Origin: a virus
DNA length: 49,507 nucleotides
Virus record (IMG/VR): IMGVR_UViG_3300032278_000014
Span: 1 to 49,507 of that record
Reading direction: 5' to 3' (one strand)
Shown: in pieces, positions 9,117-32,060 of the stretch
How positions within the stretch are numbered: position 1 is the stretch's first letter
Layout: each line of letters begins with the position of its first letter
Made by a program: the position numbers and the translations under genes
Notes under the pieces: generated by a model
Seen by the model: the letters and a program-made list of their open reading frames with translations, nothing else
Databases searched by the model: none
Told to the model about the DNA's origin: nothing

Positions 9117-9153
9117 TTGACCTCCTCGGTTACTGTCGATGAGGTCAAACATA
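9117..9153 (-). promoter_or_regulatory. Recurrent promoter-leader element, copy A
   Basis: A TATGTT -10-like hexamer (9148-9153) is followed nine bases later by CGACAG (9133-9138), then TAACC and GAGGAGGT before the ATG. From TTGTATGTT to the first codon it is nearly identical to the copy before the 31506 gene. The expected transcription start falls close to CGACAG, so the motif would form the 5' end of the mRNA. Confidence 0.6.
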
Positions 9154-9202
9154 CAAGACTCACTGCGTGTAAATCCGTTAAAACGCTCCCCGGGATGGGG
9201 TT

Positions 9203-10063
9203 CTACATCCGGCGACCGCTCTCCTCTTCAGCTTCAACAGGAGCGGCGAATGCAAACCTGATCATGCTGTTATTGGTCCGCATGTTGCCGTGGTACAGGT
9301 CACCAATTTCCCAGCCTTTGGACTTGTGGTAGTTAGTAGTCAGCTTGAATCTCATTGGGTGAGCGAACCGCACCAACGCAGAATCACCGCGGACAGGATA
9401 CCAGCGGGTCAAATCATGATAAAGCTGCGGATAGCAGCCAATCACGACCGTTTCTTCACCGTCAATGATGCTGACATCGGAGCGATGTGACCAAGCCCTA
9501 GTACCCGGCACCATGTCCGTATCTACAACGATGTCAAACCAGACGCTGTCGTCGGTGATATCTGTAACCGTTAACCGAGCGAACGGAAATGGGTTGCGGT
9601 CGGTGCCAGTATCGGTGCTGAAGCGCATGGTGCCGGTGCCTACTGCGAATCGCAACGAATCGCCAAATTCCACGGTTTTGATGTTCGGGATTCCCCGTTT
9701 CACACCAGCCTCGATCATGGTTTCATATTTCTTTTCGTTGATGTCGCGTTGCACTTCAGCGTCCCTCTCTTCTTCAGCGCGCCTAATGCGACTTTCGAAG
9801 AGATCAAAAGCACTGTGCAAATCATCCAAATCTGTCCGGCGAGTTTGCAGCTTGAATCGCTCCTTTCTGATTTGGTCGGAGGTGAAAACTGAAAGCTCCT
9901 CCCCAAGCTGATCTAATTCAGCTTCCGAGAAACGGTGTTGAAAGCCGTACCCCCGGTGGGGCACATCTTCATTAGCGACGTGCTCGAGTTTTGCCAGAAA
10001 GTGCAGGGTGATAGCAGCTAGTGATTCACTGCCCGACTGTTCAGGCTTTTCTTTTTCGGTCAT
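9203..10063 (-). CDS. Hypothetical coiled-coil protein upstream of portal
   Basis: A 286-aa soluble protein of unknown family. Residues about 50-125 are highly charged and helical (RKERFKLQTRRTDLDDLHSA), consistent with a coiled coil. The C-terminal half is beta-rich, with VWFDIVVDTDMVPGTRAW and other short strands. It starts within the stop of the small gene before it (ATGA). It could be a structural or packaging accessory protein by location, but nothing in the sequence proves that. Confidence 0.6.
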   Translation of the reverse strand: MTEKEKPEQSGSESLAAITLHFLAKLEHVANEDVPHRGYGFQHRFSEAELDQLGEELSVFTSDQIRKERFKLQTRRTDLDDLHSAFDLFESRIRRAEEERDAEVQRDINEKKYETMIEAGVKRGIPNIKTVEFGDSLRFAVGTGTMRFSTDTGTDRNPFPFARLTVTDITDDSVWFDIVVDTDMVPGTRAWSHRSDVSIIDGEETVVIGCYPQLYHDLTRWYPVRGDSALVRFAHPMRFKLTTNYHKSKGWEIGDLYHGNMRTNNSMIRFAFAAPVEAEEESGRRM

Positions 10064-10176
10064 TGGCTGTGTTGTCCTTCCTTCGCTTTTTTTGCGCGAA
10101 TGCGGGCGAGCGCTTCTTGCTTGTCTGCTTCCAGCATTGCTTGGACTCGAGGGTCACTCATATCCATTACTGTCAC
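10060..10176 (-). CDS. Small hypothetical protein (38 aa from GTG, or 50 aa from ATG 10212)
   Basis: This small, helical, Lys/Ala-rich protein contains VMDMSDPRVQAMLEADKQEA and ends KKAKEGQHSQ. The ATG at 10212 gives 50 residues but has no ribosome site. The in-frame GTG at 10176 follows GGAAGG and a GACAGCAACC leader motif at about 10195-10204, so I prefer it. Its stop overlaps the start of the 286-aa gene (ATGA), which it probably serves as upstream partner in one transcript. Confidence 0.45.
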   Translation of the reverse strand: MTVMDMSDPRVQAMLEADKQEALARIRAKKAKEGQHSQ

Positions 10177-10199
10177 GATGGTTTCCTTCCCATAGGTTG

Positions 10200-10234
10200 C
10201 TGTCCCCTTCATTCAATCACAATCCCGGGGACAG
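10200..10234. promoter_or_regulatory. 8-bp inverted repeat at a divergent gene boundary
   Basis: CTGTCCCC (10200-10207) and GGGGACAG (10227-10234) are perfect inverted arms around 19 bases. The left arm overlaps the leader motif of the minus-strand small gene. It lies in the divergent gap between the minus unit (10176) and the plus unit (10326), and may be an operator or an mRNA hairpin. Confidence 0.4.
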
Positions 10235-10283
10235 ATAAAGCCTAGAACTAGCCATTTCTGCCGTTCTCTCTGCACTGACCGTG

Positions 10284-10325
10284 TATGTTGATTTCCGACA
10301 GCAACAATCGAAGGAGGTGAAACAA
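10284..10325 (+). promoter_or_regulatory. Recurrent promoter-leader element, copy C
   Basis: TATGTT at 10284-10289 is followed six bases later by CGACAG (10296-10301), then CAACAATCG and AAGGAGGTGA before the ATG at 10326. It shows the same order and spacing as the other copies. No clear -35 box is seen. Confidence 0.6.
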
Positions 10326-10745
10326 ATGGACGACACAATTTTGGAAACCAAAGACGTTCCCACAAAGGAGGCAGTCACCGTAGGTGATTATTTCACCGCT
10401 TCGTGGGGATACGACCAGACGAACATCGACTACTACGAAGCAGTCGCCGTATCAAAGACTGGTCGCGTCAAACTCCAGCGAATAGAGCAGCGAATAATCA
10501 GCCGCGGTTGCCCAAACGACGAAGTAGTACCAGTTCCTGGTGCCTACGTCGGGGAGCCAACCGGCTACAAGATCCCTCGCTTCTATTACAACGGCTATGC
10601 CAGCCAACCAGAGGCTTTCGGTGAACGCAAGCTGGTTTGCTACGTGCGGTTGAACAGTTATTCGTCAGCAACACGAGTCGCCCGCGATGAATTCGAGGCG
10701 GCCACCATAGTTCACAATCAAACCAACCCAGTCTACGGGCACTAA
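10326..10745 (+). CDS. Conserved hypothetical protein in a single-gene plus-strand unit
   Basis: A 139-aa protein. Residues 18-45 read GDYFTASWGYDQTNIDYYEA, the opening of a small family I have seen in actinophages and bacteria with no established function. A beta-rich domain follows, with VSKTGRVKLQRIEQRI and EVVPVPGAYVGEPTGYKI. The ATG at 10326 has an ideal AAGGAGGTGA site. It has its own promoter-leader and a hairpin terminator at 10772-10798, and lies against the direction of the surrounding late genes. Confidence 0.7.
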   Translation: MDDTILETKDVPTKEAVTVGDYFTASWGYDQTNIDYYEAVAVSKTGRVKLQRIEQRIISRGCPNDEVVPVPGAYVGEPTGYKIPRFYYNGYASQPEAFGERKLVCYVRLNSYSSATRVARDEFEAATIVHNQTNPVYGH

Positions 10746-10771
10746 TATCCAAACAGCCCAGAAGCTGCGAG

Positions 10772-10798
10772 GAGCCGCTCCCCCGGGGGCGGTTCTTT
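10772..10798 (+). terminator. GC-rich hairpin terminator
   Basis: GAGCCGCTCCC and GGGGGCGGTTC pair almost completely and are followed by TTT. It lies 27 bases after the stop of the 10326 gene. The reverse strand could serve the minus-strand genes that end at 10924. Confidence 0.6.
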
Positions 10799-10810
10799 CG
10801 CGTATGGACT

Positions 10811-10862
10811 GGACCCCCGAGGCGACTCGATCCTGGGGGGGTAGAAATCGCCTCGAAGGTCC
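10811..10862. repeat. 15-bp imperfect inverted repeat with a G-rich loop
   Basis: The arms 10811-10825 and 10848-10862 are complementary except for two positions that can form G-T pairs. The 22-base loop holds a run of seven G. No T-run follows on either strand, so it is not a simple terminator. The gap from 10746 to 10923 holds only this, the terminator at 10772 and a weak 61-aa minus-strand frame (10742-10927) that I do not support. Confidence 0.6.
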
Positions 10863-10923
10863 AACAGCAGTTTTGCATAGCGCCAGCTATCCATGTTTAT
10901 TGACACAAAAACCGTTGGGTTAG

Positions 10924-11148
10924 TCACTCATTTCCAGCGTGCAGGTCAGCGTGACGTGTCATCCACATGCCATGTTCGTATGTGCGTTCGTCTAGGCGCT
11001 GCGTGCGTTCGTCAATAGATCTCAGCATGACAGTGTTGTCAGCGTGCGCCTGATTGTTCTCACGTCGCATCACACTGGTCAGCACAGCGAACAATCCCGT
11101 GACAAGAGCCGCTGTTACGGCCCCTACCGCTGCAACCACATCTGTCAT
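10924..11148 (-). CDS. Small membrane protein with one N-terminal TM segment
   Basis: A 74-aa protein. Residues 5-26 (VAAVGAVTAALVTGLFAVLT) form one membrane segment, followed by a charged helix with SIDERTQRLDERTYEHG. This size and layout resemble small phage membrane proteins, including some holins, but a dedicated holin gene exists at 33472-33684. The start overlaps the thermonuclease stop (ATGA), so it is the last coupled gene of the lipoprotein-nuclease block and may act at the membrane with them. Confidence 0.55.
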   Translation of the reverse strand: MTDVVAAVGAVTAALVTGLFAVLTSVMRRENNQAHADNTVMLRSIDERTQRLDERTYEHGMWMTRHADLHAGNE

Positions 11149-11495
11149 CGTTTGCCGCCGTCATAAACTTCTGCGTGGCCTACGTCCACCAGCACATCAT
11201 TCAGGCAGCCATCGTCGTCGCCGATGACTCGACCTAAAACCCGGCCAAATTTGCCTCGCTTGTCCAAGCTGGTTTGAATCTTGATGGCCTCTTGTGCCTC
11301 GCACCAATTCACCACGTAGTCCTTTGCAGCTAAACCGAGCGCCTTCTCAGCCTTATCTCTCGTGCGGGATTCTGGTGTGTTGATGCCGAGGAGCCGGACA
11401 CGAGCTTGGTACCGAATGGAGAAACCCAGATCAAGAATTACGTCCACTGTGTCGCCGTCAACTACCCGGTCAATCGTCGCTGCGTATTCGTACAT
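11145..11495 (-). CDS. Thermonuclease (SNase-like)
   Basis: A 116-aa staphylococcal-nuclease fold protein that would cut DNA or RNA in a calcium-dependent way. Visible are RVVDGDTVDVILDLGF, then RVRLLGINTPESRTRDK (with the Arg and Glu of the active site), then DKRGKFGRVLGRV and a closing LNDVLVDVGHAEVY. No signal peptide is seen, so it would act in the cytoplasm unless carried by partners. Its start lies on the stop of the giant lipoprotein gene (TGATG). Confidence 0.85.
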   Translation of the reverse strand: MYEYAATIDRVVDGDTVDVILDLGFSIRYQARVRLLGINTPESRTRDKAEKALGLAAKDYVVNWCEAQEAIKIQTSLDKRGKFGRVLGRVIGDDDGCLNDVLVDVGHAEVYDGGKR

Positions 11496-14400
11496 CAGGA
11501 GCCACTGCTTTCTTCTGTTTCGTCACTGATGGTCAGTCGATACCAACCAGAGTTTGCTGCGTTGTACACCGTTCCCTCGACAGCGTAGTCGCCTGGTTCC
11601 ATCAACCGATCTATCTCAGCGTCCCAGGCGTTTGATACGTTCTGGATGACTGGGCGCGGTTCGTCGTAGCCAACGATCGTGTCGTTCGGGAACTCAGCTT
11701 CGTCCTCGGCGTCTGCCGGGGGGTTGTTGCATGGATGTGAGTCGCCGCCAATTGAGCAGTCTCGACCACCGTCGTCATCGGATTCAATGAACGTGCCTCT
11801 CGTGTATTCGTCGAGGTCGCCGGTGTGATCCCCGAGGTCAGGGTCGTCGTCCTCATACAGGTAGACGTAGGGGTCGGCGTGCTGGTTGGTGGTGTTGAAC
11901 TGGCTGTACTCCAGATTGGATTCAGCTTCAATGACGATGCGACGCCGTTCCCCGGTAACGCTCGGATCGTCTGGGACGGTGAATGTCACCACTTCACGTT
12001 CGCTTCGTTGATCTGGAAAGCCGGTGTTCCAGTTGCCGACAATGCACCAGTCGCCGAAGCCAGTCCATCCACCTTGTGAGCAGTTAGCTGGCTCTGTTGT
12101 GACCACTTCAGTTGTGTTGGTGCTCACAACGTTGGGATCTGCAACCGTGGTTGTTGATTGTGTGTCGCCGTATGTGGTGCCGCCGCCGCAGCCGCCGTTG
12201 CCTGTGCCGTCGTCGTAGCACCACCAGTCATCTGTCCGTTGCCTCGTGCTGGAGATTGTGCTGACGGTTTCTGTTTCGGTGACTGTGGTCGCTGTTGTGA
12301 CTTGCTGATACCAGTAGCCGTCGTTGGAGTTGAAGCCAAGCGTAGACGTGACGTTGACCGCGGTGGTTGTCTCCGTTTCGGTGCTTACCTGGTCTGCGAG
12401 ATCTTCCCACGTTGAACTGCTTCCTCCGTCCCATGATGGTTGCGGAGGCGGAGGCGGAGGCGGAGGTTCTGGCTCCTCTATTTCTTCTTCTGGTTCTTCA
12501 TCTACCCCAGGTTCTTCATCTTCGGGTTCGTCGTCCGGTAGTTCTTCAGGGGTATCCACCTCGTCGGGTGGTTCTGTCGACTCTGGTTCTTCTTCATCCG
12601 GCGTTTCGCCGTCATCCGCCAAAGGATCGTCCGCACCGTCAGCTTCGTCGGGAGTCGTGTCGTCATCTTCTTCAGTGTCCCACTCCGGCAACATCAACTC
12701 TGGTTCTTGCCACGGTTCTTCCTCAATTTCTTCATTTCCCCAGTCATCGTCCCAGTCAGGCAGCGTGATGTCCGGTAACGAATCTAGGCTGCCATCATGC
12801 GTTTCATCCTCTGGATTTTCGGGCCATTCCTCGATTGGCGGCAACAGATCTTCAGCAACGATTAGTTCATCATCCTCAACGATTTCAATTTCGACTTCCC
12901 AACCGTCGTCACCCCATTCGCCCTCCACCCGGTCGGGTAGTTCTTCAATCAGGTCCTCGGTTCGCTCAATGATCAGTTCCATTTCTTCGAGGAACTCATC
13001 GTCAAGTAACTCGGCTAAAAAGCCGCCTTCATCTTCTTCGACCCATTCCACGAAGTCCTCTGATTCGACCCACACCCAGTCGTCATCTTCTTCATGCCAG
13101 TCATCCTCCCAGGTTTCTTCGTCCCAAAAGTCGTCGTCCAAATCAAGAATGAACGGAGCTTCTTCACCTTCTTCTGGTTCAACAAACCATGCGTCGTCTT
13201 CGTCTGGTTCTTCAGCTAATCGCTCCTCCACCAGTTCTCGTAGCTCTGCCACAATCGTTGCCGGGCGCGCCTCAATTTCTTCCACAACAATTTCAACTTC
13301 ACCCTCCTCGTTTATCTCAACAACAATTTCTTCGGGCACATCTTGATCTGGTTGACTAATTTCGATCTCTGCTACCTGTTCCCCCTCGTCTGTTGCGATT
13401 GAGATCACAATTTGGGGCGCTGTGGGGGCAGGTGGGGCTTCGTGGGGGGTTTCACCAGACTCCGACCCAGCGTCGCTCTCAGGCGGTTCTGTGGGATCTG
13501 GAGGCGGTGGGGGTGCAGTGAACTGGAACGCAAGTTCCTGATCGTCCTCGATAACGACGCTGACGGCGACATTCTGATCAGCTATATCAACCGCAGCTTC
13601 TTCAAGGTCATTGATTTCGTAGCCTTCGTCCTCTGTGACCGCCAGCACGGGTTCGTCATCAGCCTCGTCGGTTATATCAGCGATAGTGGTTTCAACTCGC
13701 GCCGCGGCTCCGTCCTGCGCCACAAACAGCGATACGGCCCCATCGGTGCTGCCATCCAAAGTTTCCACATCAGCCGTGTAGTTTTCCACAGACGCTGGAA
13801 GCAGGATGAGCACAGGATCTGATGTGCTGGATGTTGCGATGTATCGGTACACCGCCCCCGGGATTTCATTGACAAGTTCACCGTCGAATACACCCAACCG
13901 TCGCCCTTGATCATCTACGACTTGCAAAGCAATCTGGCTGTCAGATGATCCAGCCGCAGTCAGTAACGTCATGGATTTCGTGCCGTCAGCTTTAGGGCAG
14001 AACGCGCACGAAAACGGAGGCTGGCGAGCCGCCATCGGCGTTAACTCCAACGTGCCGGTGCTCCCGGTCCAAGCTGATGCTGATTCTGTTGGATTCGTAG
14101 CGGCTAGTGCATAGGTCCAGACGTTACCCACAACATCAATCCAGCGTGTTTCCGTGGGCCAATTCGAGTCATAGATGTAGATTCGACTGCCCCCATTTAC
14201 AGCTTCAACCGCATAGGGGGTGACTGCGTGGCCGCCTTCTGCTGAATACAGACCCAACGTGTACCCCGCAGATGTTTCCGGGTTAGCGAAATCATCAGCC
14301 AACGTTGCAACAATCTCGGAGGGGCTTTGGTCTCGATAGAACGCTGCTGCCGCTTGCGTTTCCGAAGAAAACTGTGTCACGAACCAGAATGCAAGCTCGG

Positions 14401-15342: not shown

Positions 15343-15465
15343 CGGATTGCTCCTGGTTCGGACACTGAGGTCACTACTGCTAACCCGAGGGTAGCATCGG
15401 CTTATGGTTTCGCCCTGCCCTTGGTGCTCAGAAATTGAGAAACACGACGACGATTGCGCCGCTCT

Positions 15466-15660
15466 CTACGGGTCGCTGGGTTTAGACCACTCCTTAGGTG
15501 AGATCTTGGAGCGAATTTCTTCGAGCAAGTCCTCGATGGTTCGGCTGAGTGCTTCGCAGTATCGGACAGGATTGCCAGATACGGGAGAGCCTTCGGCGAC
15601 GGCTGCTGCGGAGTCAGCTTGATTTGCGATCCGGCTGAGAGTTTCAGCAAGGTCTGTCAT
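15466..15660 (-). CDS. Small helical hypothetical protein
   Basis: A 64-aa soluble protein (MTDLAETLSRIANQADSAAA at the start) with an amphipathic helical character. The AGGAGGAACTC before the ATG at 15660 is a strong ribosome site, which supports it. No family is recognised. It is the first gene of the block that continues into the membrane protein and giant lipoprotein, after a 123-base gap (15343-15465) in which I see no gene. Confidence 0.55.
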   Translation of the reverse strand: MTDLAETLSRIANQADSAAAVAEGSPVSGNPVRYCEALSRTIEDLLEEIRSKISPKEWSKPSDP

Positions 15661-15759: not shown

Positions 15760-15772
15760 TCCCGATTTTTGT

Positions 15773-16018
15773 TTATCGGTCCCAAATAGTTTCGCTGCCG
15801 TCGCCTTGCCCGAAGGGGACGATGTTGTAGCACTTTTTGCAAACCAGTTCGTCATCAAAGTAGGTCGATGCGCCTGCGCAGCAATCAGTGAGCCGCTGGC
15901 CATTGTCGGGGTTATAGCTGCCGACGAGCAAAATCCCGGGGTCTTCGCCTTCGCGAATTTTCATCACCTCCGCGCCTGCGGTAGATCTGGGAGTTTTGTG
16001 TATTTCGTAACTTCTCAT
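15773..16018 (-). CDS. Small zinc-ribbon-like protein
   Basis: An 81-aa protein, started at the ATG at 16018 after GAGGAGGTGAA; the longer frame to 16087 would cross the promoter. Residues about 42-66 contain RLTDCCAGAS and ELVCKKCYNIV, a possible four-cysteine zinc ribbon. It is one half of a divergent pair with the 16177 gene, sharing a symmetric control region. The function is unknown. Confidence 0.6.
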   Translation of the reverse strand: MRSYEIHKTPRSTAGAEVMKIREGEDPGILLVGSYNPDNGQRLTDCCAGASTYFDDELVCKKCYNIVPFGQGDGSETIWDR

Positions 16019-16176
16019 TTCACCTCCTCGATGGTTACTGCCGATGCCTTGACAACTACACGATTCAATGCACGAAGTAAAGCGCAACCAGTAAACGTCA
16101 CGAGTTGCGCTTTATTTGGTCGGTGATTGCGTGTAGAAGAGAGGACATGACAGCAGCCACCCCACAAGGAGGGAAA
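16019..16176. promoter_or_regulatory. Divergent promoter pair with symmetric operator-like arms (copies E and D)
   Basis: The minus strand has TTTACT (16076-16081), 17 bases and TAGTTG (16053-16058), then CGGCAG and GAGGAGGTGA. The plus strand has TTTATT (16111-16116), 17 bases and TAGAAG (16134-16139), then GACAGC and AAGGAGGG. The -35 boxes lie at the ends of a perfect 10-bp inverted repeat, AAAGCGCAAC (16079-16088) and GTTGCGCTTT (16104-16113). A dimeric regulator bound there would touch both promoters. Confidence 0.65.
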
Positions 16177-16847: not shown

Positions 16848-16863
16848 CCGACCAAAACCACTA

Positions 16864-18756: not shown

Positions 18757-19344
18757 TTAGTGTTCGGAGGTTATGTTTTGCAGTTTTAGCTGCTCTGGTT
18801 CTTCTTGACAAGATTGAATCCATGAGTTCCATGCTTCGGTGACTGCTCCTGTCCCGGGGAACATGTCGTGCAGGGTGTCTGTTGTTTCTGCTCCTACGCA
18901 GGTGAATAGCCATTGGCTTACTGAATTGGGTTTGGCTCCTGCTAATCCTTTGCGCATGGCCATTCGTTCCATCATCCAGTCTCGGATGCTTGACTGTCCG
19001 TTTTGTGCGTCTGCTCGTTCTCTGGGTGGTCGAGCCGGTTTGACGAGTACCGGTTCCCATGCGTATTGCAGTCGGGTTCCCGGTTTCCAGCTTGCCCACT
19101 GTTTGACCCATGCAACGATTCTGTAGTCGTTATCTTCCAGCCCAGCGTTTCGTGCGCAGTCGATGATGTGTCCTAAAGCTGGGGAGCTTGTGTGGAGAAT
19201 GAATCCGTCATAGCTGACTAGCTGATTCAGCAACTCTGCGTGGTCTACTTCTCCACCGAAATCGGGGTGGTCTTTGTATAGGTGTGCCTGCCCGGGATAG
19301 GGCGGGTCGGCGTATGCGATTCGAGCGGACGGTAGGAGTTGCAC
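18757..19344 (-). CDS. DNA methyltransferase-like protein (DPPY type)
   Basis: A 195-aa protein. The catalytic motif DPPYPG is at about residues 13-18, and the SAM-binding motif DMFPGTGAVTEAW is near the C-terminus. This catalytic-then-SAM order is that of beta-class amino-methyltransferases, and DPPY favours N6-adenine. It is short and lacks an obvious target-recognition domain, so partners may give specificity. The GTG start follows GGGAGGTG and lies directly after the stop of the Mom-like gene upstream. Confidence 0.7.
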   Translation of the reverse strand: MQLLPSARIAYADPPYPGQAHLYKDHPDFGGEVDHAELLNQLVSYDGFILHTSSPALGHIIDCARNAGLEDNDYRIVAWVKQWASWKPGTRLQYAWEPVLVKPARPPRERADAQNGQSSIRDWMMERMAMRKGLAGAKPNSVSQWLFTCVGAETTDTLHDMFPGTGAVTEAWNSWIQSCQEEPEQLKLQNITSEH

Positions 19345-19965
19345 CTACACCTCCCGACCGGAAGTCGGGTGGATCACTGTCGATCCCTCATCCGCAGGTG
19401 ATGGATATGCTATCCCATTGCGTCTAATAACACGGGCCATTTGCTTATCTAAACCCTTTAGGTATCGGTGTTTGCCAGGTTGCAGGCGCGTCGGTGCGGT
19501 TGGTCGCGCCGGGTGATTCCATGCGCCTCGAGTGTGCCGCCATCTGCCACCTATCCTGTATTCCGTAACTACTGCAGAAGTTCCCGTGTACGTCCAGTTG
19601 CCAGCTTGATAGATGCCTCCGTGGTGGCCTTGCGCTGGATCAGCAAACGAAACAACTGCACGCAAATTCGGACTGGTTTCCTTCAGTATCTTCAGAGCTT
19701 TCGCCACTATCTGTGTCACGGGGGATTCATGTGCCCGTAATGCGACACGCACCAGTTCGCAAAGCTCTGTCTGGTCTAAACCCAGCATTGTTCCTAAATG
19801 TGGGCTGGCTCCTCGACCGAATAGCACTGCGCCAATGAATCGTTCATCTTCCCAGACGCCACATTTGATCAGCTTCCCAGTTGGCATGATTTGTGAATAA
19901 TGCCATTTGGATACTGCGTGGCTAGCTGCCTCCGTAGCGCAGCCTGCAACTACTAAATCAGTCAT
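19345..19965 (-). CDS. Mom-like DNA modification protein, copy 1
   Basis: A 206-aa GNAT-fold protein of the Mom family. Mu Mom converts adenine to a carbamoylmethyl form that blocks restriction enzymes. Key stretches are SHAVSKWHYSQIMPTGKLI, GAVLFGRGASPHLG, ELCELVRVALRA and VVSFADPAQGHHGGIYQAGN. The order and sequence match Mom-type proteins annotated in actinophages. It overlaps copy 2 by eight bases and is followed by a DPPY methyltransferase, so the two may act on the same DNA. Confidence 0.7.
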   Translation of the reverse strand: MTDLVVAGCATEAASHAVSKWHYSQIMPTGKLIKCGVWEDERFIGAVLFGRGASPHLGTMLGLDQTELCELVRVALRAHESPVTQIVAKALKILKETSPNLRAVVSFADPAQGHHGGIYQAGNWTYTGTSAVVTEYRIGGRWRHTRGAWNHPARPTAPTRLQPGKHRYLKGLDKQMARVIRRNGIAYPSPADEGSTVIHPTSGREV

Positions 19966-24414: not shown

Positions 24415-24977
24415 GCTTCCTCCAACCATTTCCACTCGGGACCGAGTTTGGTGTAGCCCGCACGTACGAGAAACGAGGCATTGTGAGGGTCTAACAGTGA
24501 AGAATCTAAATACTCCGCACGCGTCAACTCTCGCTGTTGTTGAGCCTTCCTTTTTGTACTGTCGGTGGGCTTGCCGGTTGTTTTCAGGAGCTTAGGCCTG
24601 ATTTTCGCGCAGAGCGCTTCCACAAAATCTGCTTGCTCGTCCGGTGATAACCCGGTCCAATATTTTCGGCCGTAAGCGATTTGGGCCACATGCTTGATGT
24701 AATTCCTAGCATCTTCATGTCCTTCATGGGCAGCCAAAAAACCGTTCGCTAGTTCAAGTTCAACTGAAATCGCAGCTTCAAGCATCCGCTGTTCATGCTC
24801 CGATTGCGTAAGTTTCTTCAACGGTCGAAGGTCCTTCTTCTTCTTAACGTGAGTAGAACCACAGACCGGACACGGGTTGCTTCGTTGGTCTTTTAGTGCA
24901 AGTGCTAAACGCTGGCGATGATGAACGAAAGAAGAATGAAGTTCATCCTCTGTTTTGCAGTCAGTCCAAATCCCCAT
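24411..24977 (-). CDS. Hypothetical protein, first gene of the early leftward operon
   Basis: A 188-aa protein with NPCPVCGSTHVKKKKDLR near residue 35, a possible half zinc ribbon, and a helical and basic remainder. The ATG follows GAGGAGTT and a leader with CAGTAACGA, reminiscent of the recurrent leader. It is the first gene downstream of the leftward early promoter (25033-25061). Confidence 0.55.
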   Translation of the reverse strand: MGIWTDCKTEDELHSSFVHHRQRLALALKDQRSNPCPVCGSTHVKKKKDLRPLKKLTQSEHEQRMLEAAISVELELANGFLAAHEGHEDARNYIKHVAQIAYGRKYWTGLSPDEQADFVEALCAKIRPKLLKTTGKPTDSTKRKAQQQRELTRAEYLDSSLLDPHNASFLVRAGYTKLGPEWKWLEEA

Positions 24978-25032
24978 AACTCCTCATTCGTTACTGGCTC
25001 GACTCCCCATTTTCAATACAGCCGACTTGACC

Positions 25033-25061
25033 AATCTACATGAAAGGGCACCCTTTGTAAA
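25033..25061 (-). promoter_or_regulatory. Leftward early promoter with operator in its spacer
   Basis: On the minus strand TTTACA (25056-25061), 17 bases and TAGATT (25033-25038) form a good promoter. Its spacer contains the near-palindrome AAAGGGTGCCCTTT (25043-25056). A repressor bound there would block polymerase. Confidence 0.7.
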
Positions 25062-25102
25062 TCACTGATGAAACCGCCATTACTTAACTACCTCAGAGCT
25101 GA

Positions 25103-25150
25103 TTTAAGAAGGGCACCCTTATCTGATAGGATGGATTCGACAGCAACACT
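25103..25150 (+). promoter_or_regulatory. Rightward early promoter with operator in its spacer and leader copy F
   Basis: TTTAAG (25103-25108), 18 bases and TAGGAT (25127-25132) form a promoter. Its spacer carries AAGGGCACCCTT (25109-25120), the same near-palindrome as in the leftward promoter. CGACAGC (25138-25144) and AGGAGG follow, as in the other leaders. The remaining leader to 25236 is long and holds a second ribosome site just before the first gene. A short frame from TTG 25174 to the TAG before it could be a leader peptide. Confidence 0.65.
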
Positions 25151-25236
25151 AGGAGGCCGCCTGACTGATCTCATTGTCCTACCCAACTGACAGGGTCACA
25201 TCACCCGGTCAACGAATGACTCCATAGGAGGAGCAA

Positions 25237-26624: not shown

Positions 26625-26631
26625 CCTGAAC

Positions 26632-26659
26632 GGCCCACCCGCCTCTAAACGGGTGGGCC
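26632..26659 (+). terminator. Strong hairpin terminator after the RecT-like gene
   Basis: GGCCCACCCG and CGGGTGGGCC are perfect 10-bp arms with an eight-base loop, followed by TTCAGTGTT. It lies eight bases after the stop of the RecT-like gene and probably lowers expression of the replication genes that follow. Confidence 0.75.
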
Positions 26660-26694
26660 TTCAGTGTTAATCCTCGCGCCATTTGGAGGAGTCA

Positions 26695-27414: not shown

Positions 27415-27587
27415 TGGAATCAACGGAAATCACCAACCGCATGAAACTGTATGCAGCACATGAGAAATATGGTGACCGGTTACTTACAGCCCACGTGGAT
27501 GAAAACTTCATCCTTATTCGGCGCGGCCTACCAGCGGCGCTGCTAGCTGTCGCAGAAGCGATAGGGGAATTTGATGGACGAAGCTGA
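27414..27587 (+). CDS. Small hypothetical protein
   Basis: A 57-aa gene whose ATG overlaps the stop of the initiator-like gene (TAATG). It begins MESTEITNRMKLYAAHEKYG and ends AVAEAIGEFDGRS. It overlaps the next gene by 14 bases, so all are translationally coupled. No family is recognised. Confidence 0.55.
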   Translation: MESTEITNRMKLYAAHEKYGDRLLTAHVDENFILIRRGLPAALLAVAEAIGEFDGRS

Positions 27588-28083
27588 GCGGCAGTCCCGT
27601 AGAAACGCTGTAGCGGCCATAGGGACGCTCTCAGTGGCTTTCGGTAAGGAGATGCCCGACGAACAAATTGACATTTACATCGACGCGCTGCATGACATTC
27701 CGGGTGAACAGTTAGCACAAGCTGTGAAAACCATTATCGGCACAGAGCGATTTTTCCCCGCAGTCGCAACTATTCGCCAAACAGCATTAGTTGACCCCTC
27801 CCGCCTTTCTGCAGAAGAAGCGTGGGGGTTTATTAGCCGACGAATCCAATCCGGAGGCCGAATGGCTGGCACTCGGGGATTAACAGACGACACCAAACGG
27901 TCAGTGGATGCCTGCGGAGGTTGGCCGGCATTATGCGAATCAACGAATCCCACTGGTGATCGAATCACTTTCACCAAGGCATACAACGCGGTAACTACTC
28001 GCAACGACAGAACAGCAACTAACTGGAAACTAGGGAAAGGATTACGACGGGCAATCGCCAGCATCGGACGAGGTGACATATGA
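27574..28083 (+). CDS. Helicase-loader-like protein
   Basis: A 169-aa protein started at the ATG at 27574 after AGGGGAATTTG. Residues about 20-75 (QIDIYIDALHDIPGEQLAQA, FFPAVATIRQTALV) resemble G39P-like loaders, in which a helical N-terminus binds DnaB-type helicase. The C-terminal half is basic. The position after the initiator-like gene supports a loading or inhibition role. The resemblance is moderate. Confidence 0.55.
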   Translation: MDEAERQSRRNAVAAIGTLSVAFGKEMPDEQIDIYIDALHDIPGEQLAQAVKTIIGTERFFPAVATIRQTALVDPSRLSAEEAWGFISRRIQSGGRMAGTRGLTDDTKRSVDACGGWPALCESTNPTGDRITFTKAYNAVTTRNDRTATNWKLGKGLRRAIASIGRGDI

Positions 28084-28451
28084 GCAAAGTTTTAGATGAC
28101 ACGTTCAGCAAGCTCCTTGACGCATACCCCGACAGCTATGACGCAGGCAACATGCGCGAGCTTTGGACTCAGACATGGGAAAAGGAACCTTTGAGCGTGA
28201 TCGTCCGCACTGCTGACCGCCTTATGAAGACATGGCAACGGTGCCCGTCATTGGATGAATTTATGGAGGAAACCAAAAAAGAAACCCATCGGCAAAACCG
28301 GGCGGCGTTACTCGAACAGATGGATGCCTGCCCTGAATGCGATCATGGGTATATAGAAACCAAAGAGAACACTTTCAAGCCTTGCCATAGCTGCCTGCCT
28401 GATTCGTATGAACGATGGGCAGTCGGGGATTACGAACCAACACGAACATGA
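28080..28451 (+). CDS. Helicase-loader-like protein with zinc ribbon
   Basis: A 123-aa protein. Its N-terminus (TFSKLLDAYPDSYDAGNMRE, then RCPSLDEFMEET) has the same layout as the preceding loader-like protein. The C-terminus has a clear CPECDHGYIETK and FKPCHSCLPD zinc ribbon (about residues 84-107). It may be a diverged partner or competitor of the loader. It overlaps both neighbours with ATGA. Confidence 0.55.
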   Translation: MSKVLDDTFSKLLDAYPDSYDAGNMRELWTQTWEKEPLSVIVRTADRLMKTWQRCPSLDEFMEETKKETHRQNRAALLEQMDACPECDHGYIETKENTFKPCHSCLPDSYERWAVGDYEPTRT

Positions 28452-28987
28452 AGAAACTGGTCACGGTAGCCATCACGATTTGCTTAGTAGTCGTGTCGTA
28501 TAGCGCCCAGTCGACAAAGGTGACTGAACATTCGGCTATGACGCTGCTCACCCTCGCCACGACTACCGTGCCAGTTGCAACCACGGTACCGCCTACTACA
28601 ACATCAGTGGTGGCAACAACGACCTCCACCACCACGGCTCCCCCGGTAACGCTGCTGCAACCCGAAAGCAACATCATTCTGGTTTCAATGGAAACACCAC
28701 AGGTCAGTGACCTCGAGCGACTGATTTGCTTTGTGGGATCCGAATGGGATTGCGGTGAAGCGATCGCTGTTTCTCAGTGCGAGTCGTGGCATACACCTCA
28801 CAGCATCAGCCCCTTCAACTCGAACGGCACCCGCGATTGGGGGCTGTTCCAAATCAACGACGTGTGGGCCGATGCTTTCCCCAGGCGGTGGGAGCATCGC
28901 CTTGACCCTGTGACCAATATAGAAATGGCTCACCACATTTGGCTTGTCACCGGACGTTCGTGGAAACACTGGACGTGCCAGCCATGA
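28448..28987 (+). CDS. Exported lysozyme/transglycosylase-like protein
   Basis: A 179-aa protein started at the ATG at 28448. A signal peptide (MKKLVTVAITICLVVVSYS) is followed by a Thr/Pro-rich linker (about residues 45-75), common in actinobacterial wall proteins. The C-terminal domain (about 95-179) has AVSQCESWHT with a candidate catalytic Glu, then SNGTRDWGLFQINDVWAD and a closing disulfide-type Cys. This resembles resuscitation-factor or lysozyme-like domains. Its position in the replication operon is unusual. Confidence 0.65.
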   Translation: MKKLVTVAITICLVVVSYSAQSTKVTEHSAMTLLTLATTTVPVATTVPPTTTSVVATTTSTTTAPPVTLLQPESNIILVSMETPQVSDLERLICFVGSEWDCGEAIAVSQCESWHTPHSISPFNSNGTRDWGLFQINDVWADAFPRRWEHRLDPVTNIEMAHHIWLVTGRSWKHWTCQP

Positions 28988-30030
28988 GAATACTGAGCCT
29001 TTGCTCTGGGTACGGTGGACTGGATTTAGCTGTGGAAAAGCATTTCAACGCTGAAACGGTGTATTGGTCTGACGTTGATCCAGCAGCATGTGCAGTGATG
29101 AGTGCGCGCTTCCCGTCAGCTACACCGCTCGGCGATTTAACGAAACTTGACAGCACCGCGCTCAACTTTGACGTGTTGACTGCCGGATACCCATGCCAGC
29201 CGTTTAGTACCGCTGGCAACCGAAAAGGAGAAGATGATGAACGACACCTCTGGCCCCATATCGCAGACACCATCAGCGTTTCTCGACCCCGATGGGTCGT
29301 GCTGGAGAACGTCGCAGGGCACCTTACTCTCGGAGGCCCCACCGTTATTGCAGAGCTTGCCCAAATGGGGTACGGCGTTCAATGGGGAACTGTTCGCGCT
29401 AGCTCCGCCGGTGCTCCCCACCAACGACAGCGGCTTTTCATCCTTGCCCACACCGACAGCCCGGGACTACAAGGACACGGGCGACAACACCGATTACGAA
29501 CGCATAGCAGCGAAAGCGAAACTAGCTGGGACCGTTCACCTCTTGCCGACACCAGTAGTCAACGACATGGGGGAAAACCACACCATCGAATGGTGGAACG
29601 ACTGGATCAAAGAGAAGAGACTGCAACACAACAACAGCAACGGCCACGGCAAGAGCCTGTCGATAGAGGCTCGTCTGCTGCCAACACCTCGAGCGCAGAA
29701 CGGGGAAGCACGCAACATGAACATTTGGGAACGTCCACTGGATCAGCCCCAAAATCTCGAGAATGCGTTAGCGAGACTGACTGGGGAAAATACGAACCAG
29801 CCATCAGACGGTGGGAACACATCACTGGACGAATAGCCCCTCCCCCGGTCACCGATAACAAACTGTCGCAGCACTTCGTGGAGTGGCTGATGGGAATACC
29901 GGCCGGTCATGTTTGCGAAATTGTGGACAACCGAGCCAAAGCTCTCAAAGTTCTCGGTAACGGCGTCGTGCCGCAGCAGGGCCGGATAGCACTACGCCTG
30001 CTACAGAAAGGATTAAACAATGGCAACTAA
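28984..30030 (+). CDS. C5 cytosine DNA methyltransferase
   Basis: A 348-aa protein started at the ATG at 28984 (ATGA with the previous stop). It has motif I (LSLCSGYGGLDLA), catalytic motif IV GYPCQPFS (Cys 71), motif VI (ENV near 108), motif VIII (QRQRLF near 147) and motifs IX-X (FVEWLMGIPAGHV, LGNGVVPQQ at 324-332). It would methylate cytosine on phage DNA, probably against host restriction. The region between VIII and IX is low-complexity, rich in Ser, Arg, Gln and His, and overlaps another gene in a second frame (29237-29836). Confidence 0.85.
   Translation: MRILSLCSGYGGLDLAVEKHFNAETVYWSDVDPAACAVMSARFPSATPLGDLTKLDSTALNFDVLTAGYPCQPFSTAGNRKGEDDERHLWPHIADTISVSRPRWVVLENVAGHLTLGGPTVIAELAQMGYGVQWGTVRASSAGAPHQRQRLFILAHTDSPGLQGHGRQHRLRTHSSESETSWDRSPLADTSSQRHGGKPHHRMVERLDQREETATQQQQRPRQEPVDRGSSAANTSSAERGSTQHEHLGTSTGSAPKSRECVSETDWGKYEPAIRRWEHITGRIAPPPVTDNKLSQHFVEWLMGIPAGHVCEIVDNRAKALKVLGNGVVPQQGRIALRLLQKGLNNGN
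29237..29836 (+). CDS. Overlapping gene inside the C5 methyltransferase gene (WRTSQ/LPTP module)
   Basis: A 199-aa frame lying entirely within the methyltransferase gene in another phase. It has an AAGGAG site six bases before the ATG at 29237. The protein has CWRTSQGTLLSEAPPLLQSL, PKWGTAFNGELFALAPP, LPTPTARDYKDTGDN and two more LPTP repeats. I associate this WRTSQ/LPTP pattern with phage proteins tied to C5 methylases, where it often precedes the VEWLMG...LGNGVVP segment. Here that segment is in the host frame. The overlap therefore looks like real dual coding rather than chance. Confidence 0.6.
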   Translation: MNDTSGPISQTPSAFLDPDGSCWRTSQGTLLSEAPPLLQSLPKWGTAFNGELFALAPPVLPTNDSGFSSLPTPTARDYKDTGDNTDYERIAAKAKLAGTVHLLPTPVVNDMGENHTIEWWNDWIKEKRLQHNNSNGHGKSLSIEARLLPTPRAQNGEARNMNIWERPLDQPQNLENALARLTGENTNQPSDGGNTSLDE

Positions 30031-30277
30031 ACGCATCCGCTACGCGGTATTTGTACCCGATCAACCCACTCAGCTACCAGCAGTGCTGAAATGGGGGTCA
30101 GGTCGAGAACCGTGGGCGTGGGGAAACCCAGACGAGGAACGAATGATGAAACCCGTAGGTGTTTATTTAGACGAAGAAGAAGCTGTGAGAATGGCGATAG
30201 CCGCTTGGCTCGAACAACACGGTGACCCCCGGACACTGCTGGCAACTCTCCATTTAGATTTGCAAGGTGACTACTAA
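30020..30277 (+). CDS. Small hypothetical protein
   Basis: An 85-aa protein, beginning MATKRIRYAVFVPDQPTQLP, with an acidic helical C-terminal half. It overlaps the methyltransferase gene by 11 bases and the HNH gene by one, so it is coupled to both. It has an AAGGAT ribosome site. No family is recognised. Confidence 0.55.
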   Translation: MATKRIRYAVFVPDQPTQLPAVLKWGSGREPWAWGNPDEERMMKPVGVYLDEEEAVRMAIAAWLEQHGDPRTLLATLHLDLQGDY

Positions 30278-30633
30278 TGAAACGTGGCGGACCGTTGCGG
30301 CGGGTGTCGAAGAAACGGGCAAGCATTCAAGGGCAGCGACGCAAACTCGTTCGCGAGCAGTTAGCCCTCCGGCCTCAGTGCGAGGCTGGTGAACCAATCC
30401 ATCTGTATTACGTCGATCACTTCGGCAGGGAGTTCGCCCGCGAGAAACTGAAAACGGATCGCTGTCATGGGCGCGCCACCGATATCCACGAACCGTTGAC
30501 GAGGGCTAGGGGCGGATCCATTATTGACGTTCACAACACAATTGCGGTTTGCCGTCGATGCCATGACTGGATCCACGACAACCCGCAAGTTGCGACGGAG
30601 CTTGGATTGCTCCGTAGTCAGTTTTCTAAATAA
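30277..30633 (+). CDS. HNH endonuclease
   Basis: A 118-aa HNH nuclease. It has a basic N-terminus (MKRGGPLRRVSKKRASIQG), then RCHGRATDIHEPLTRARGGS, then NTIAVCRRCHDWIHDNP, which give the His-Asn-His core and the CxxC pair. HNH enzymes of this type in phages often help packaging with terminase or degrade host DNA. It ends convergent to the minus-strand small genes with an eight-base overlap and no terminator. Confidence 0.8.
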   Translation: MKRGGPLRRVSKKRASIQGQRRKLVREQLALRPQCEAGEPIHLYYVDHFGREFAREKLKTDRCHGRATDIHEPLTRARGGSIIDVHNTIAVCRRCHDWIHDNPQVATELGLLRSQFSK

Positions 30634-30838
30634 TCTCCCATTCATCTTCGGCCGGGATGAGCGACAATTTTGATCCGCAGTCCCAGTCCACTCGAATACC
30701 AAAATCAAAGGTTTGCCGCAAGCTGCCAGCAACAGTTCCTTTGTCCCCTTTAACCAAGGCGGTGAACCGGTCGGCGCAGCTAATGAGCCGCACACGGTCC
30801 CCGGGTCGCAGATCAGGAGTAGATCGACCTAATGCCAC
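30626..30838 (-). CDS. Small hypothetical protein
   Basis: A 70-aa protein. The start is GTG at 30838 after GGGGAGG. It contains DLRPGDRVRLISCADRFTAL and resembles small SH3-like beta folds, but that is only an impression. It is the last of four coupled minus-strand genes running from 31369. Confidence 0.5.
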   Translation of the reverse strand: MALGRSTPDLRPGDRVRLISCADRFTALVKGDKGTVAGSLRQTFDFGIRVDWDCGSKLSLIPAEDEWEII

Positions 30839-31059
30839 AATGGCCTCCCCTCTTCTTTGTTCTCTGCTATGCGGTCGTCTGCTCTGTCGCGGTCGGAGTA
30901 GTCATAAAAGCCCACTCGTTCAGCTAGTTCAGCTAGTTCAGCAACCCGTTCATCGTCGCACTCGGCACAAATTTCACCGAACTTGGCGTCAGACATGGGG
31001 AAAATGGGGTATTGCACCCCATCGCCCTCAATGTCGCAGTATTGACATTTTGGTGTCAT
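30829..31059 (-). CDS. Small four-cysteine zinc-finger-like protein
   Basis: A 76-aa protein started at the ATG at 31059 after TGGAGAAG. It begins MTPKCQYCDIEGDG, and EICAECDDERVAELAELAER follows (two CxxC pairs). An acidic helix and a charged end complete it. Its start overlaps the previous stop as TGATG. No family is certain. Confidence 0.6.
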   Translation of the reverse strand: MTPKCQYCDIEGDGVQYPIFPMSDAKFGEICAECDDERVAELAELAERVGFYDYSDRDRADDRIAENKEEGRPLWH

Positions 31060-31199
31060 CACTTCTCCAGTCCCCATGCTTTGATTTGAATACGATTCCA
31101 ATACTCTGTTTCGTTTTTTGATCTAGCTATTTCTTGTTCACGACGCTTCCGCATGTCCTCTAGGCGTTCGTGAATTTCTATAGGTACGAACCCGCGCAT
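31059..31199 (-). CDS. 46-aa hypothetical protein
   Basis: It begins MRGFVPIEIHERLEDMRKRR and ends IQIKAWGLEK. The protein is basic and helical. Its start overlaps the stop of the 56-aa membrane protein gene as TGATG, and its own stop overlaps the next start in the same way. This repeated coupling is the main support for such a short gene. Confidence 0.55.
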   Translation of the reverse strand: MRGFVPIEIHERLEDMRKRREQEIARSKNETEYWNRIQIKAWGLEK

Positions 31200-31369
31200 C
31201 AGTTCTCCAGTTCCCAGTCGTAGGGCTTCAGTGGTGTGCCGTGATGTGTCACATCAAGCAACCGCTGCCATTGAGCGGTATATCGACGATCACGCCTATC
31301 CATAAAAGCCCCGACTGCTAGTAGCCCGCCGAGTAAAAAAAGCTCTAACGGGATCCGAAATTCATCCAT
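31199..31369 (-). CDS. 56-aa membrane protein
   Basis: It begins MDEFRIPLELFLLGGLLAVG, with one membrane segment at about residues 6-24, then a basic stretch (MDRRDRRYTAQWQRLLD) and an end with KPYDWELEN. It has an AGGAGGAT ribosome site and the recurrent leader upstream. It is the first gene of the four-gene leftward unit. The function is unknown. Confidence 0.6.
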   Translation of the reverse strand: MDEFRIPLELFLLGGLLAVGAFMDRRDRRYTAQWQRLLDVTHHGTPLKPYDWELEN

Positions 31370-31505
31370 TCAGTGAATCCTCCTGTTCGTTGCTGTCGGA
31401 CAACCACAACTACACGATCAGCGCCAATCAGTAAACAGATTGCGGCAACTTTGAGCCATTTCATCTTGTATGTTGGCCTCTATCGACAGCGACCGAGGAG
31501 GTCAA
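31370..31505. promoter_or_regulatory. Divergent promoter-leader pair (copies H and B)
   Basis: Minus strand: TTTACT (31430-31435), 17 bases, TAGTTG (31407-31412), CGACAG (31393-31398), CAACGAAC and AGGAGG. Plus strand: TTGTATGTT (31467-31475 region; TATGTT at 31469-31474), nine bases, CGACAG (31484-31489), then CGACCGAGGAGGT. The minus promoter matches that of the 16018 gene, and the plus one matches that of the 9116 gene. The two units are therefore likely to be expressed together. Confidence 0.65.
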
Positions 31506-31937
31506 ATGGAAGAACAGGAATGGGACAAGGTGGATATCGCCATCTTGCACCGCACAGATCGGGGCCGGTTTACCGGGATCACCGATGACAACTTGGGGGA
31601 GGTAACCGTAGAACGTCAATACGCCTACGAGATACCTACCCATCAGCTATTCAGCCAACGGCTGAATGTCGAAGCTCCGCACCGCGATTGTTTCGCATGG
31701 AACAACAACGTTACTGGCCGCGAATTTCCAGCACGAAGGAAAACTCGCAGCCTTTCAGCCGGGGATATCGTCTTAGTAACCGAAACCGGACTGACCTTGG
31801 GACTGAATTTCCAGGTAGAACAGCGACAGACGGTTTGGGCAGTCGCAGAATTTGGTTGGGACAAGCTGACTGACGAACAACTTCAACAGGTCTATACCCA
31901 AAGCATGGATGCGGTCCGAGGGGGTGCCGCTAAATAA
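31506..31937 (+). CDS. Hypothetical protein
   Basis: A 143-aa protein started at the ATG at 31506 after GAGGAGGTCAA. It contains AILHRTDRGRFTGITDDNLG and DIVLVTETGLTLGLNFQVE, a mixed fold without an active site that I recognise. It is the first gene of a plus-strand unit that continues through the tRNA-like element to 32988. Confidence 0.6.
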   Translation: MEEQEWDKVDIAILHRTDRGRFTGITDDNLGEVTVERQYAYEIPTHQLFSQRLNVEAPHRDCFAWNNNVTGREFPARRKTRSLSAGDIVLVTETGLTLGLNFQVEQRQTVWAVAEFGWDKLTDEQLQQVYTQSMDAVRGGAAK

Positions 31938-31943
31938 GCATTG

Positions 31944-32033
31944 GGGGTGAGTATCCAGCGGGACGCCGCGGGTACAGGAATGCCGAGGGAAAATAGCGAT
32001 TCTCGGTAGGAGGTTCGATTCCTTCTCATCCCG
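31944..32033 (+). ncRNA. tRNA-like structure, possibly a mRNA processing element
   Basis: GGGGTGA (31944-31950) pairs with TCATCCC (32026-32032), followed by G as a discriminator. A perfect T-arm (GGAGG, loop TTCGATT, CCTTC at 32009-32025) includes the B-box GGTTCGATTCC. Between them are two hairpins: TATCC/GGGTA with GCGG/CCGC (31952-31974), and GCCGAG/CTCGGT with a 14-base loop (31982-32007). The hairpins replace normal D and anticodon arms, so this is probably not a decoding tRNA. No CCA is encoded. Confidence 0.45.
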
Positions 32034-32060
32034 CGACAGCAAAAACCAAAGGAGGCTGTT
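32034..32060 (+). promoter_or_regulatory. Leader copy G directly after the tRNA-like element
   Basis: CGACAGC (32034-32040), AAAAACCAA and AGGAGG precede the ATG at 32061. Unlike other copies, there is no -10 hexamer in front. Cleavage at the 3' end of the tRNA-like structure would release an mRNA beginning with the same CGACAGC 5' end. Confidence 0.5.

What the first reader, a model, noticed from the sequence alone, without database searches (positions are those of the whole stretch)
9117..32060. A recurrent promoter plus 5' leader element shared by at least eight transcription units
The copies lie at 9117-9153(-), 10284-10325(+), 16019-16081(-), 16111-16176(+), 25103-25150(+), 31370-31435(-), 31469-31505(+) and 32034-32060(+). 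They share a -10 of TATGTT, TAGTTG, TAGAAG or TAGGAT, then after 5-9 bases CGACAGYAAC (one copy CGGCAG, one TGACAG), then 4-7 bases and AGGAGG. The copies at 9117 and 31469 are almost identical over 37 bases. The expected transcription start falls at or near CGACAG, so it would be the 5' end of the mRNA. A looser copy lies before the gene at 10176, and the gene at 24977 has CAGTAACGA and GAGGAG. The units are mainly small accessory genes and early genes, so this looks like a phage-wide regulon with a shared mRNA cap-like leader. It is comparable in spirit to the start-associated sequences of cluster K mycobacteriophages, but of different sequence.
Basis: partly seen in the sequence, partly recalled or inferred. 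Interest (0 to 1): 0.8.

Follow-up and report, generated by a model that had tools for sequence, protein, structure and literature searches.

The report
Phage mRNA leader punctuated by tRNA-likes
A group of uncultured phages gives many small-gene messages the same short 5' leader, and appears to make that 5' end in two interchangeable ways: by starting transcription there, or by placing a tRNA or a miniature tRNA look-alike directly in front of it so that tRNA-processing enzymes could cut the message there.

Summary
The repeated leader is real. Seven window sites carry YGRCAGYRR + strong Shine-Dalgarno + ATG, against 0.1 in shuffles. Relatives sharing the portal gene (79-90% identity) carry many more copies. 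The copy at 32034 has no promoter. It begins one base after the 3' end of a tRNA-like element (31944-32032, discriminator 32033) squeezed between two genes. Relatives have about 19 more such copies behind tRNA-Trp genes or 48-59-nt mini-tRNAs, always flush with CGACAG. A scan blind to the leader found 11 tRNA-like elements ahead of a Shine-Dalgarno start in these phages; all 11 are flush with CGACAGCAA. For three orthologous genes, one phage has a promoter and another a tRNA-like element, with the leader kept; in the closest pair homology breaks exactly at the leader. So the leader marks an RNA 5' end and acts in the RNA, not as a promoter part. In relatives the promoter form is often a leaderless ATG-RCA-NCA-ACC start; the tRNA form usually adds a GACAG/CTGTC stem around the Shine-Dalgarno. 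Best reading: tRNA punctuation of phage operons, giving every message a CA-rich, translation-favouring 5' end. Cleavage and translation effects are inferred, not shown.

The parts
31944..32033 (+). tRNA-like element: 7-bp acceptor GGGGTGA/TCATCCC, D-like arm, long middle arm, T-arm GGAGG-TTCGATT-CCTTC, discriminator G32033
   Evidence: structure scan score 11 of 12, 0/500 shuffles as good; relative at L281:1586 with the same conserved middle loop. Below the Rfam (E<=2) and ARAGORN thresholds; the minimum-energy fold forms the acceptor but not the T-arm
32034..32060 (+). leader CGACAGCAAAAACCAAAGGAGGCTGTT, flush with the tRNA-like element; GACAGC pairs with GCTGTT next to ATG 32061
31506..31937 (+). 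small gene upstream of the tRNA-like element; its own leader copy is at 31484
   Evidence: stop codon 6 nt before the element
32061..32492 (+). small gene (MGCRGNIEIS..) downstream; orthologues in L281 and L276 also sit behind tRNA-like elements, of a different type in L276
31455..31505 (+). promoter-type copy: TATGTT, 9 nt, CGACAGCGAC, AGGAGG, ATG 31506; TTGGCCTC/GAGGTCAA inverted repeat covers the SD
31370..31435 (-). promoter-type copy: TTTACT-17-TAGTTG, 8 nt, CGACAGCAAC, AGGAGG, gene 31199-31369; orthologue in L276 has a tRNA-like element in place of the promoter
9117..9153 (-). promoter-type copy: TATGTT, 9 nt, CGACAGTAAC, AGGAGG, gene 8976-9116; TTTGACCTC/GAGGTCAAA inverted repeat covers the SD
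10284..10325 (+). promoter-type copy: TATGTT, 6 nt, CGACAGCAAC, AAGGAGG, gene 10326-10745
16019..16081 (-). promoter-type copy: TTTACT-17-TAGTTG, 9 nt, CGGCAGTAAC, AGGAGG, gene 15773-16018
16111..16176 (+). promoter-type copy: TTTATT-17-TAGAAG, then ATGACAGCAGCC in frame with the SD-led ATG 16177 (possible leaderless start)
25044..25156 (+). divergent promoter region with two AAGGGCACCCTT dyads (25044-25055, 25109-25120); + strand TAGGAT, 5 nt, CGACAGCAAC, AGGAGG; no adjacent ATG

Best explanation
The element is the standard 5' terminus of mRNAs in this phage lineage: (Y)GRCAGCAAC, a CA-rich spacer, AGGAG, then the start codon. Its 5' end is produced in two interchangeable ways. (A) A promoter starts transcription at it; in relatives this promoter has TTGCAA / AGGGG-dyad / TATAAT, and the first transcribed codons are often themselves a leaderless ATG-RCA-NCA-ACC start. 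(B) Inside an operon, a tRNA-Trp gene or a miniature tRNA-like element (acceptor stem + one hairpin + T-arm, no encoded CCA) lies between two genes and ends exactly one discriminator base before CGACAG. Host tRNA-maturation enzymes (RNase P on the 5' side, RNase Z or an equivalent on the 3' side) would then excise it and release the downstream message with the same 5' end as a promoter-started message. This is 'tRNA punctuation' in a phage. The shared 5' end most likely serves translation and mRNA stability: ACA/CA-rich sequence near the SD or AUG favours ribosome loading, and in class B a 5-6 bp GACAG(C)/(G)CUGUY stem puts the SD in the loop of a 5'-terminal hairpin. SHOWN by sequence: the shared leader, the exact flush junction, compensatory acceptor stems, promoter/tRNA swaps, and frame conservation of the leaderless starts. 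INFERRED: cleavage, the enzymes, and the effect on translation and stability.
For: Leader enriched in the window and present in portal-relatives at gene starts. A leader-blind scan for tRNA-like elements 12-60 nt before an SD start: family 11 sites in 0.47 Mb, 11/11 flush with CGACAGCAA; distant relatives 1 site in 1.45 Mb; controls 1 in 1.3 Mb, an ordinary tRNA-Leu with a different context. Each class B junction scores above at least 491 of 500 shuffles; promoter copies score 0 except one below threshold. Acceptor stems pair 78/78 in 13 elements with 8 different 5' strands, swapped mean 53.6, 0/5000. Elements sit 6-41 nt after a stop codon in 19 of 20 cases, with an ATG 27-39 nt downstream. 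Promoter-gene-tRNA-like-gene tandems in the window, L131, L132, L276 (twice), L416, L435. Promoter/tRNA swaps at orthologous genes: L205 vs L203/L466 (downstream 91-92% DNA identity, upstream about 50%), L276 vs window 31398, L207 vs L280; element type changed at the same gene in L276 vs window/L281 and L207 vs L416. Class A start codons in frame and open 13/15, non-start variants 1/11; class B stem 15/20, 0/500 shuffles. Literature: RNase P, tRNase Z and the CCA enzyme accept acceptor/T-arm minihelices (PMC3714273); CCA-less tRNAs are matured at the discriminator by RNase Z (PMC10100781); ACA motifs and CA repeats enhance translation (PMC3879156, PMC9031893); 5'-terminal AUGs on SD-led mRNAs bind ribosomes (PMC4965119).
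Against: No RNA data; no cleavage has been seen. B. subtilis RNase Z is stimulated by a U within 2 nt after the discriminator (PMC10100781), and CGA has none, so another RNase Z type, RNase P plus an exonuclease, or another enzyme would be needed. The minimum-energy folds of the window element and of L276:2685 do not form the T-arm, and L406:2671 folds little better than shuffles (z -1.4). The window itself has only one class B copy. Five of 20 class B leaders lack the CTGTC arm. Many relatives are short contigs and are not independent. The host is unknown.
Confidence: 0.62

Rival explanations
1. Purely transcriptional: CGACAG is the initiator/initially transcribed part of a phage-specific promoter recognised by a phage factor.
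For: Seven window copies and most relatives' copies have a -10 5-9 nt upstream.
Against: About 20 copies have no -10 and a tRNA 3' end at that place instead; promoter and tRNA-like element replace each other while the leader stays.
Confidence: 0.08
2. The tRNA-like elements are ordinary or decaying tRNA genes, or conserved recombination boundaries for swapping gene cassettes; the leader is conserved because cassettes recombine there, not because messages are processed there.
For: Homology breaks exactly at the leader between L205 and L203, and one element type precedes different genes in L205 and L206; some elements are real tRNA-Trp genes.
Against: Mini elements lack a D-arm and mostly lack an anticodon-like loop but keep the acceptor, T-arm, discriminator and exact junction; acceptor stems change on both sides. 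Junctions of plain tRNA genes with a downstream SD start are rare elsewhere. Recombination alone does not explain an exact 1-nt junction with unrelated elements.
Confidence: 0.15
3. The motif is a coding relic: the N-terminal codons ATG-RCA-GCA-ACC of leaderless genes, a CA-rich downstream enhancer, with no role once the start codon is lost.
For: In relatives most operator promoters are followed at 6-7 nt by ATG-RCA-NCA-ACC; ATG/GTG forms are in frame 13/15 times.
Against: Forms without a start codon (CGACAG, CTGACAG, CAACAG, TAACAG) are widely kept, out of frame or closed by a stop, and class B leaders never have a start codon there.
Confidence: 0.1
4. Mainly a translational switch: the 5' hairpin (GACAG/CTGTC in class B, TTGACCTC/GAGGTCAA at 9117 and 31469) controls SD access, for example silencing read-through transcripts as in phage T4 e/soc (own knowledge).
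For: Stem 15/20 in class B, 0/500 shuffles; TGGC/GCCA versus TGAC/GTCA pairs in class A; z -4.9 and -2.7 at 9113-9150 and 31472-31509.
Against: The hairpin is missing in many copies and of another kind in the window; it does not explain the tRNA junction.
Confidence: 0.05

Closest known systems
tRNA punctuation of mitochondrial polycistronic transcripts
   Same: tRNA structures between genes, so that tRNA maturation would release the flanking mRNAs
   Different: A phage with bacterial-type SD genes; dedicated mini tRNA-likes mostly without a usable anticodon; a fixed leader after each element that also occurs behind promoters
Bacterial tRNA-mRNA operons (tRNA-tufB, metY-nusA; own knowledge)
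   Same: mRNA 5' end set by tRNA processing
   Different: Single host operons with functional tRNAs; no repeated leader, no interchange with promoters
T7 early mRNA punctuation by RNase III (own knowledge)
   Same: A phage operon cut between genes by a host processing enzyme to give defined mRNA ends
   Different: Long hairpins cut by RNase III, not tRNA-like elements
Start-associated sequences (SAS/ESAS) of cluster K mycobacteriophages (PMC3203893)
   Same: Repeated sequence just upstream of starts of many small non-structural genes
   Different: SAS is the 13-bp ribosome-binding site itself, ESAS an inverted repeat upstream; no tRNA-like elements described there
E. coli mRNAs with 5'-terminal AUG plus SD-led gene (PMC4965119)
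   Same: Class A in relatives: AUG at the predicted 5' end, then SD and second AUG
   Different: Here repeated across a phage regulon, in frame, with fixed codons RCA-NCA-AMC
ACA/CA-repeat translation enhancers (PMC3879156, PMC9031893)
   Same: ACA and CA-rich sequence upstream of the SD or downstream of a leaderless AUG
   Different: Never shown for this leader

Membership tests
tRNA punctuation | tRNA or tRNA-like structure abuts an mRNA with no gap | tested here: met
   11/11 blind hits flush with the leader; all class B junctions at the discriminator
tRNA punctuation | structure held by selection (compensatory change) | tested here: met
   acceptor pairs 78/78 own vs 53.6 swapped, 8 distinct 5' strands
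tRNA punctuation | RNase P/RNase Z cleavage yields the mRNA 5' end | not testable with these tools
   no RNA data; the host is unknown
Canonical tRNA gene | cloverleaf recognised by tRNA finders | tested here: not met
   ARAGORN finds only tRNA-Trp in L207, L131, L413, L414, L415; none of the mini elements nor the window element
Phage-specific promoter regulon | every copy has -10/-35 at fixed spacing | tested here: not met
   class B copies lack a -10; window hexamers and spacing vary
Phage-specific promoter regulon | shared operator | tested here: inconclusive
   AGGGG/CCCCT dyad in about 46 promoters of relatives; in the window only at 25044-25120
Leaderless mRNA | start codon at the predicted +1 | tested here: inconclusive
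   relatives: NTG 6-7 nt after the -10, in frame 13/15; window only 16148
SAS of cluster K | GGGATAGGAGCCC 3-7 bp before the start | tested here: not met
   leader sequence and position differ

The most novel reading that the evidence does not exclude
These phages evolved dedicated miniature tRNA mimics, without decoding function, as mRNA-processing signals: each is inserted between genes so that host tRNA-maturation enzymes cut the operon into messages that all carry one 5' leader identical to the promoter-made one. Promoter and tRNA mimic are interchangeable genetic parts.
Probability: 0.55. Interest if true: 0.88.

Novelty: new variant of a known kind. Interest (0 to 1): 0.78.

Why it matters
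tRNA punctuation is known from organelles; I found no report of a phage building mini-tRNAs for it. If true, it explains tRNA-like remnants that tRNA finders miss in phage genomes, gives a natural minimal substrate set for RNase P and RNase Z, and offers natural promoter/processing-site swaps that test what an mRNA 5' end does. It would also let one place mRNA 5' ends in uncultured phages from sequence alone.

Tried and rejected
Collection-wide patterns of the leader with SD alone gave mostly chance coding hits and were set aside. Near-identity search in annotated phages: no match. Search of bacterial genomes with the portal gave no close relative, so no host. MAFFT alignment of the mini elements misaligned the stems and was replaced by a right-justified pairing test. 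A single genome-wide promoter consensus for the window was rejected: hexamers and spacing vary. A second leader, CGATGGGAACAAC, behind a tRNA-like element in L239 and behind a promoter in L250 suggests the arrangement is older than this leader sequence, but two cases are too few. L413:2866/3125 looked like a swap but is one overlapping ORF counted twice.
Full report
WHAT THE WINDOW IS. The window is a 49,507-bp virus record of a siphophage type: tape measure, major tail protein, endolysin, portal, terminase, RecT-like annealing protein, replication initiator, methylase and Mom-like genes. No close DNA match exists in the annotated phage collection. Portal and terminase relatives at up to 90% and 74% amino-acid identity occur in other IMG/VR contigs. 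The host is unknown.

OBSERVATION. The eight listed copies are present. The composite pattern leader + SD + ATG is found 7 times against 0.1 in shuffles. A ninth copy lies at 2124. The copy at 25138 has no start codon nearby. The copy at 32034 has no -10.

TWO CLASSES. In relatives sharing the portal gene the same leader stands before many genes. Class A copies follow a promoter. Class B copies follow, without a gap, the 3' end of a tRNA or tRNA-like element: tRNA-Trp (L131:6092, L207:8648, L413, L415, L416; for those ARAGORN accepts), mini elements of 48-52 nt (L276:2685, L280:19924, L406:7659, L406:2671, L205, L206, L105, L131:2420), elements of 58-59 nt (L132:970, L207:6539, and a related longer one at L276:940), and 86-90-nt elements (window 32034, L281:1586). 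Between the acceptor 3' strand and CGACAG there is one base, the discriminator position; for a few elements the scan scored best one register off, because the acceptor has six pairs. No CCA is encoded after it.

IS THE JUNCTION REAL? Scoring acceptor plus T-arm, each class B junction scores above at least 491 of 500 dinucleotide shuffles, and none of the class A copies passes the threshold. Because class B was partly defined by that score, I ran a scan that ignores the leader: canonical T-loop, T-arm, acceptor, and an SD start 12-60 nt downstream. It found 11 sites in 0.47 Mb of this family, all 11 flush with CGACAGCAA; 1 site in 1.45 Mb of distant relatives; and 1 in 1.3 Mb of unrelated contigs, an ordinary tRNA-Leu. 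Across 13 elements with 8 different acceptor 5' strands, all 78 acceptor pairs (six per element) form, against 53.6 when 3' strands are dealt to other elements (0 of 5000). Several mini elements have no D-arm and no 7-nt anticodon-like loop, only a short hairpin, so decoding is unlikely for them. Caution: minimum-energy folds form the T-arm in most but not all elements, and not in the window's.

ARRANGEMENT. For 19 of 20 elements an upstream reading frame stops 6-41 nt before the element (L406:2671, at 177 nt, is the exception), and the downstream ATG is 27-39 nt after the junction (the chance hit in L334 is left out). In the window the order is leader 31484 - gene 31506-31937 - element 31944-32032 - discriminator 32033 - leader 32034 - gene 32061-32492. 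Tandems of promoter copy, gene, tRNA-like element and leader copy recur in L131, L132, L276 (twice), L416 and L435.

NATURAL SWAPS. Orthologous genes are preceded by a tRNA-like element in one phage and by a promoter in another, with the leader kept: L205:8047 versus L203:9288 and L466:2526, where identity is 91-92% downstream and about 50% (the alignment floor) upstream, the break being at the first base of the leader; L276:2685 versus window 31398 (58% amino-acid identity over 38 residues); L207:8648 (tRNA-Trp) versus L280:19543 (54% over 84), where the promoter copy reads CAACAGCAAC. At two further genes the element type itself changed (window and L281 versus L276; L207:6539 versus L416:2667). 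This speaks against a purely transcriptional role and says that what matters is the RNA 5' end and the leader.

THE PROMOTER CLASS. In relatives about 46 promoters have the form TTGCAAGGGGTNNCCCCT..TATAAT. At 6-7 nt after the -10 most have ATG-RCA-NCA-ACC, a leaderless start; the rest have (NN)ACAGCAAC followed by an SD and an ATG. When the leader holds ATG/GTG, it is in frame and open with the SD-led ATG in 13 of 15 cases; when it does not, in 1 of 11. mRNAs with a 5'-terminal AUG and a later SD start are known in E. coli and can bind ribosomes at the terminal AUG (PMC4965119). The dyad between -35 and -10 suggests a common repressor or activator.

HAIRPIN. In class B, GACAG(C) can pair with (G)CTGTY just before the ATG in 15 of 20 leaders (mean stem 3.8 against 0.72 in shuffles, 0 of 500). 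In class A the TGGC forms face GCYA and the TGAC forms face GTCA, a two-sided change, weakened by shared ancestry. In the window, 9117 and 31469 instead carry an 8-10 bp stem that covers the SD and would form fully only in read-through RNA.

HOW IT WORKS (INFERENCE). A promoter or a tRNA-processing event creates the same 5' end. RNase P, tRNase Z and the CCA enzyme accept acceptor/T-arm minihelices (PMC3714273), and CCA-less precursors are matured at the discriminator by RNase Z (PMC10100781). Two points need care: B. subtilis RNase Z is stimulated by a U within two bases, absent here (PMC10100781); and no cleavage has been observed. The CA-rich leader fits known translation-enhancing ACA and CA elements (PMC3879156, PMC9031893).

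NOVELTY. Four literature searches found no report of phage mini-tRNAs used to set mRNA 5' ends; the library is incomplete. Known parts: tRNA punctuation in mitochondria, tRNA-mRNA operons in bacteria, SAS in cluster K phages. New is the combination in a phage, with miniature elements and a fixed leader shared with promoters.

Noticed in passing
window 19324-19395 (-): tRNA-Gly(UCC)-like gene found by Rfam (44 bits) but not ARAGORN, with T-loop UGCAACU and no GG in the D-loop. It overlaps the end of the Mom-like gene, and the GTG start of a DPPY-type methylase reading frame (18757-19344) lies inside its T-arm. It is not followed by the leader.
   Followed up: partly
window 24978-25236: Divergent promoter region with two AAGGG(CA/TG)CCCTT dyads, each between a -35-like and a -10-like box (TTTACA-17-TAGATT on the minus strand), matching the AGGGG/CCCCT dyad of relatives; possible autoregulated switch.
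   Followed up: partly
window 9113-9150 (-) and 31472-31509 (+): Inverted repeat TTTGACCTC/GAGGTCAAA (TTGGCCTC/GAGGTCAA) starting right after the -10 and covering the SD; would silence read-through RNA but be lost from RNA started at the promoter.
   Followed up: partly
L239:3332 on the reverse complement, and L250:568 (+): Distant relatives with another leader, CGATGGGAACAAC..AGGAG: flush behind a tRNA-like element in L239, 6 nt behind TACACT in L250.
   Followed up: partly
L130, L132, L203, L206, L208, L466 and others: Dozens of operator-type promoters followed by leaderless genes starting ATG-RCA-NCA-ACC, a near-fixed N-terminus M-[TA]-x-T across unrelated small proteins.
   Followed up: partly
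window 16019-16176: Back-to-back leader copies flank an inverted repeat AAAGCGCAAC..GTTGCGCTTT, possibly a shared operator.
   Followed up: no
L205:8047 and L206:8413 mini elements: The middle hairpin loop CTAAGGA in a 5-bp stem looks like an anticodon arm (U33, AAG), unlike the UUCG/GAAA loops of other mini elements; origin from a D-armless tRNA is possible.
   Followed up: no
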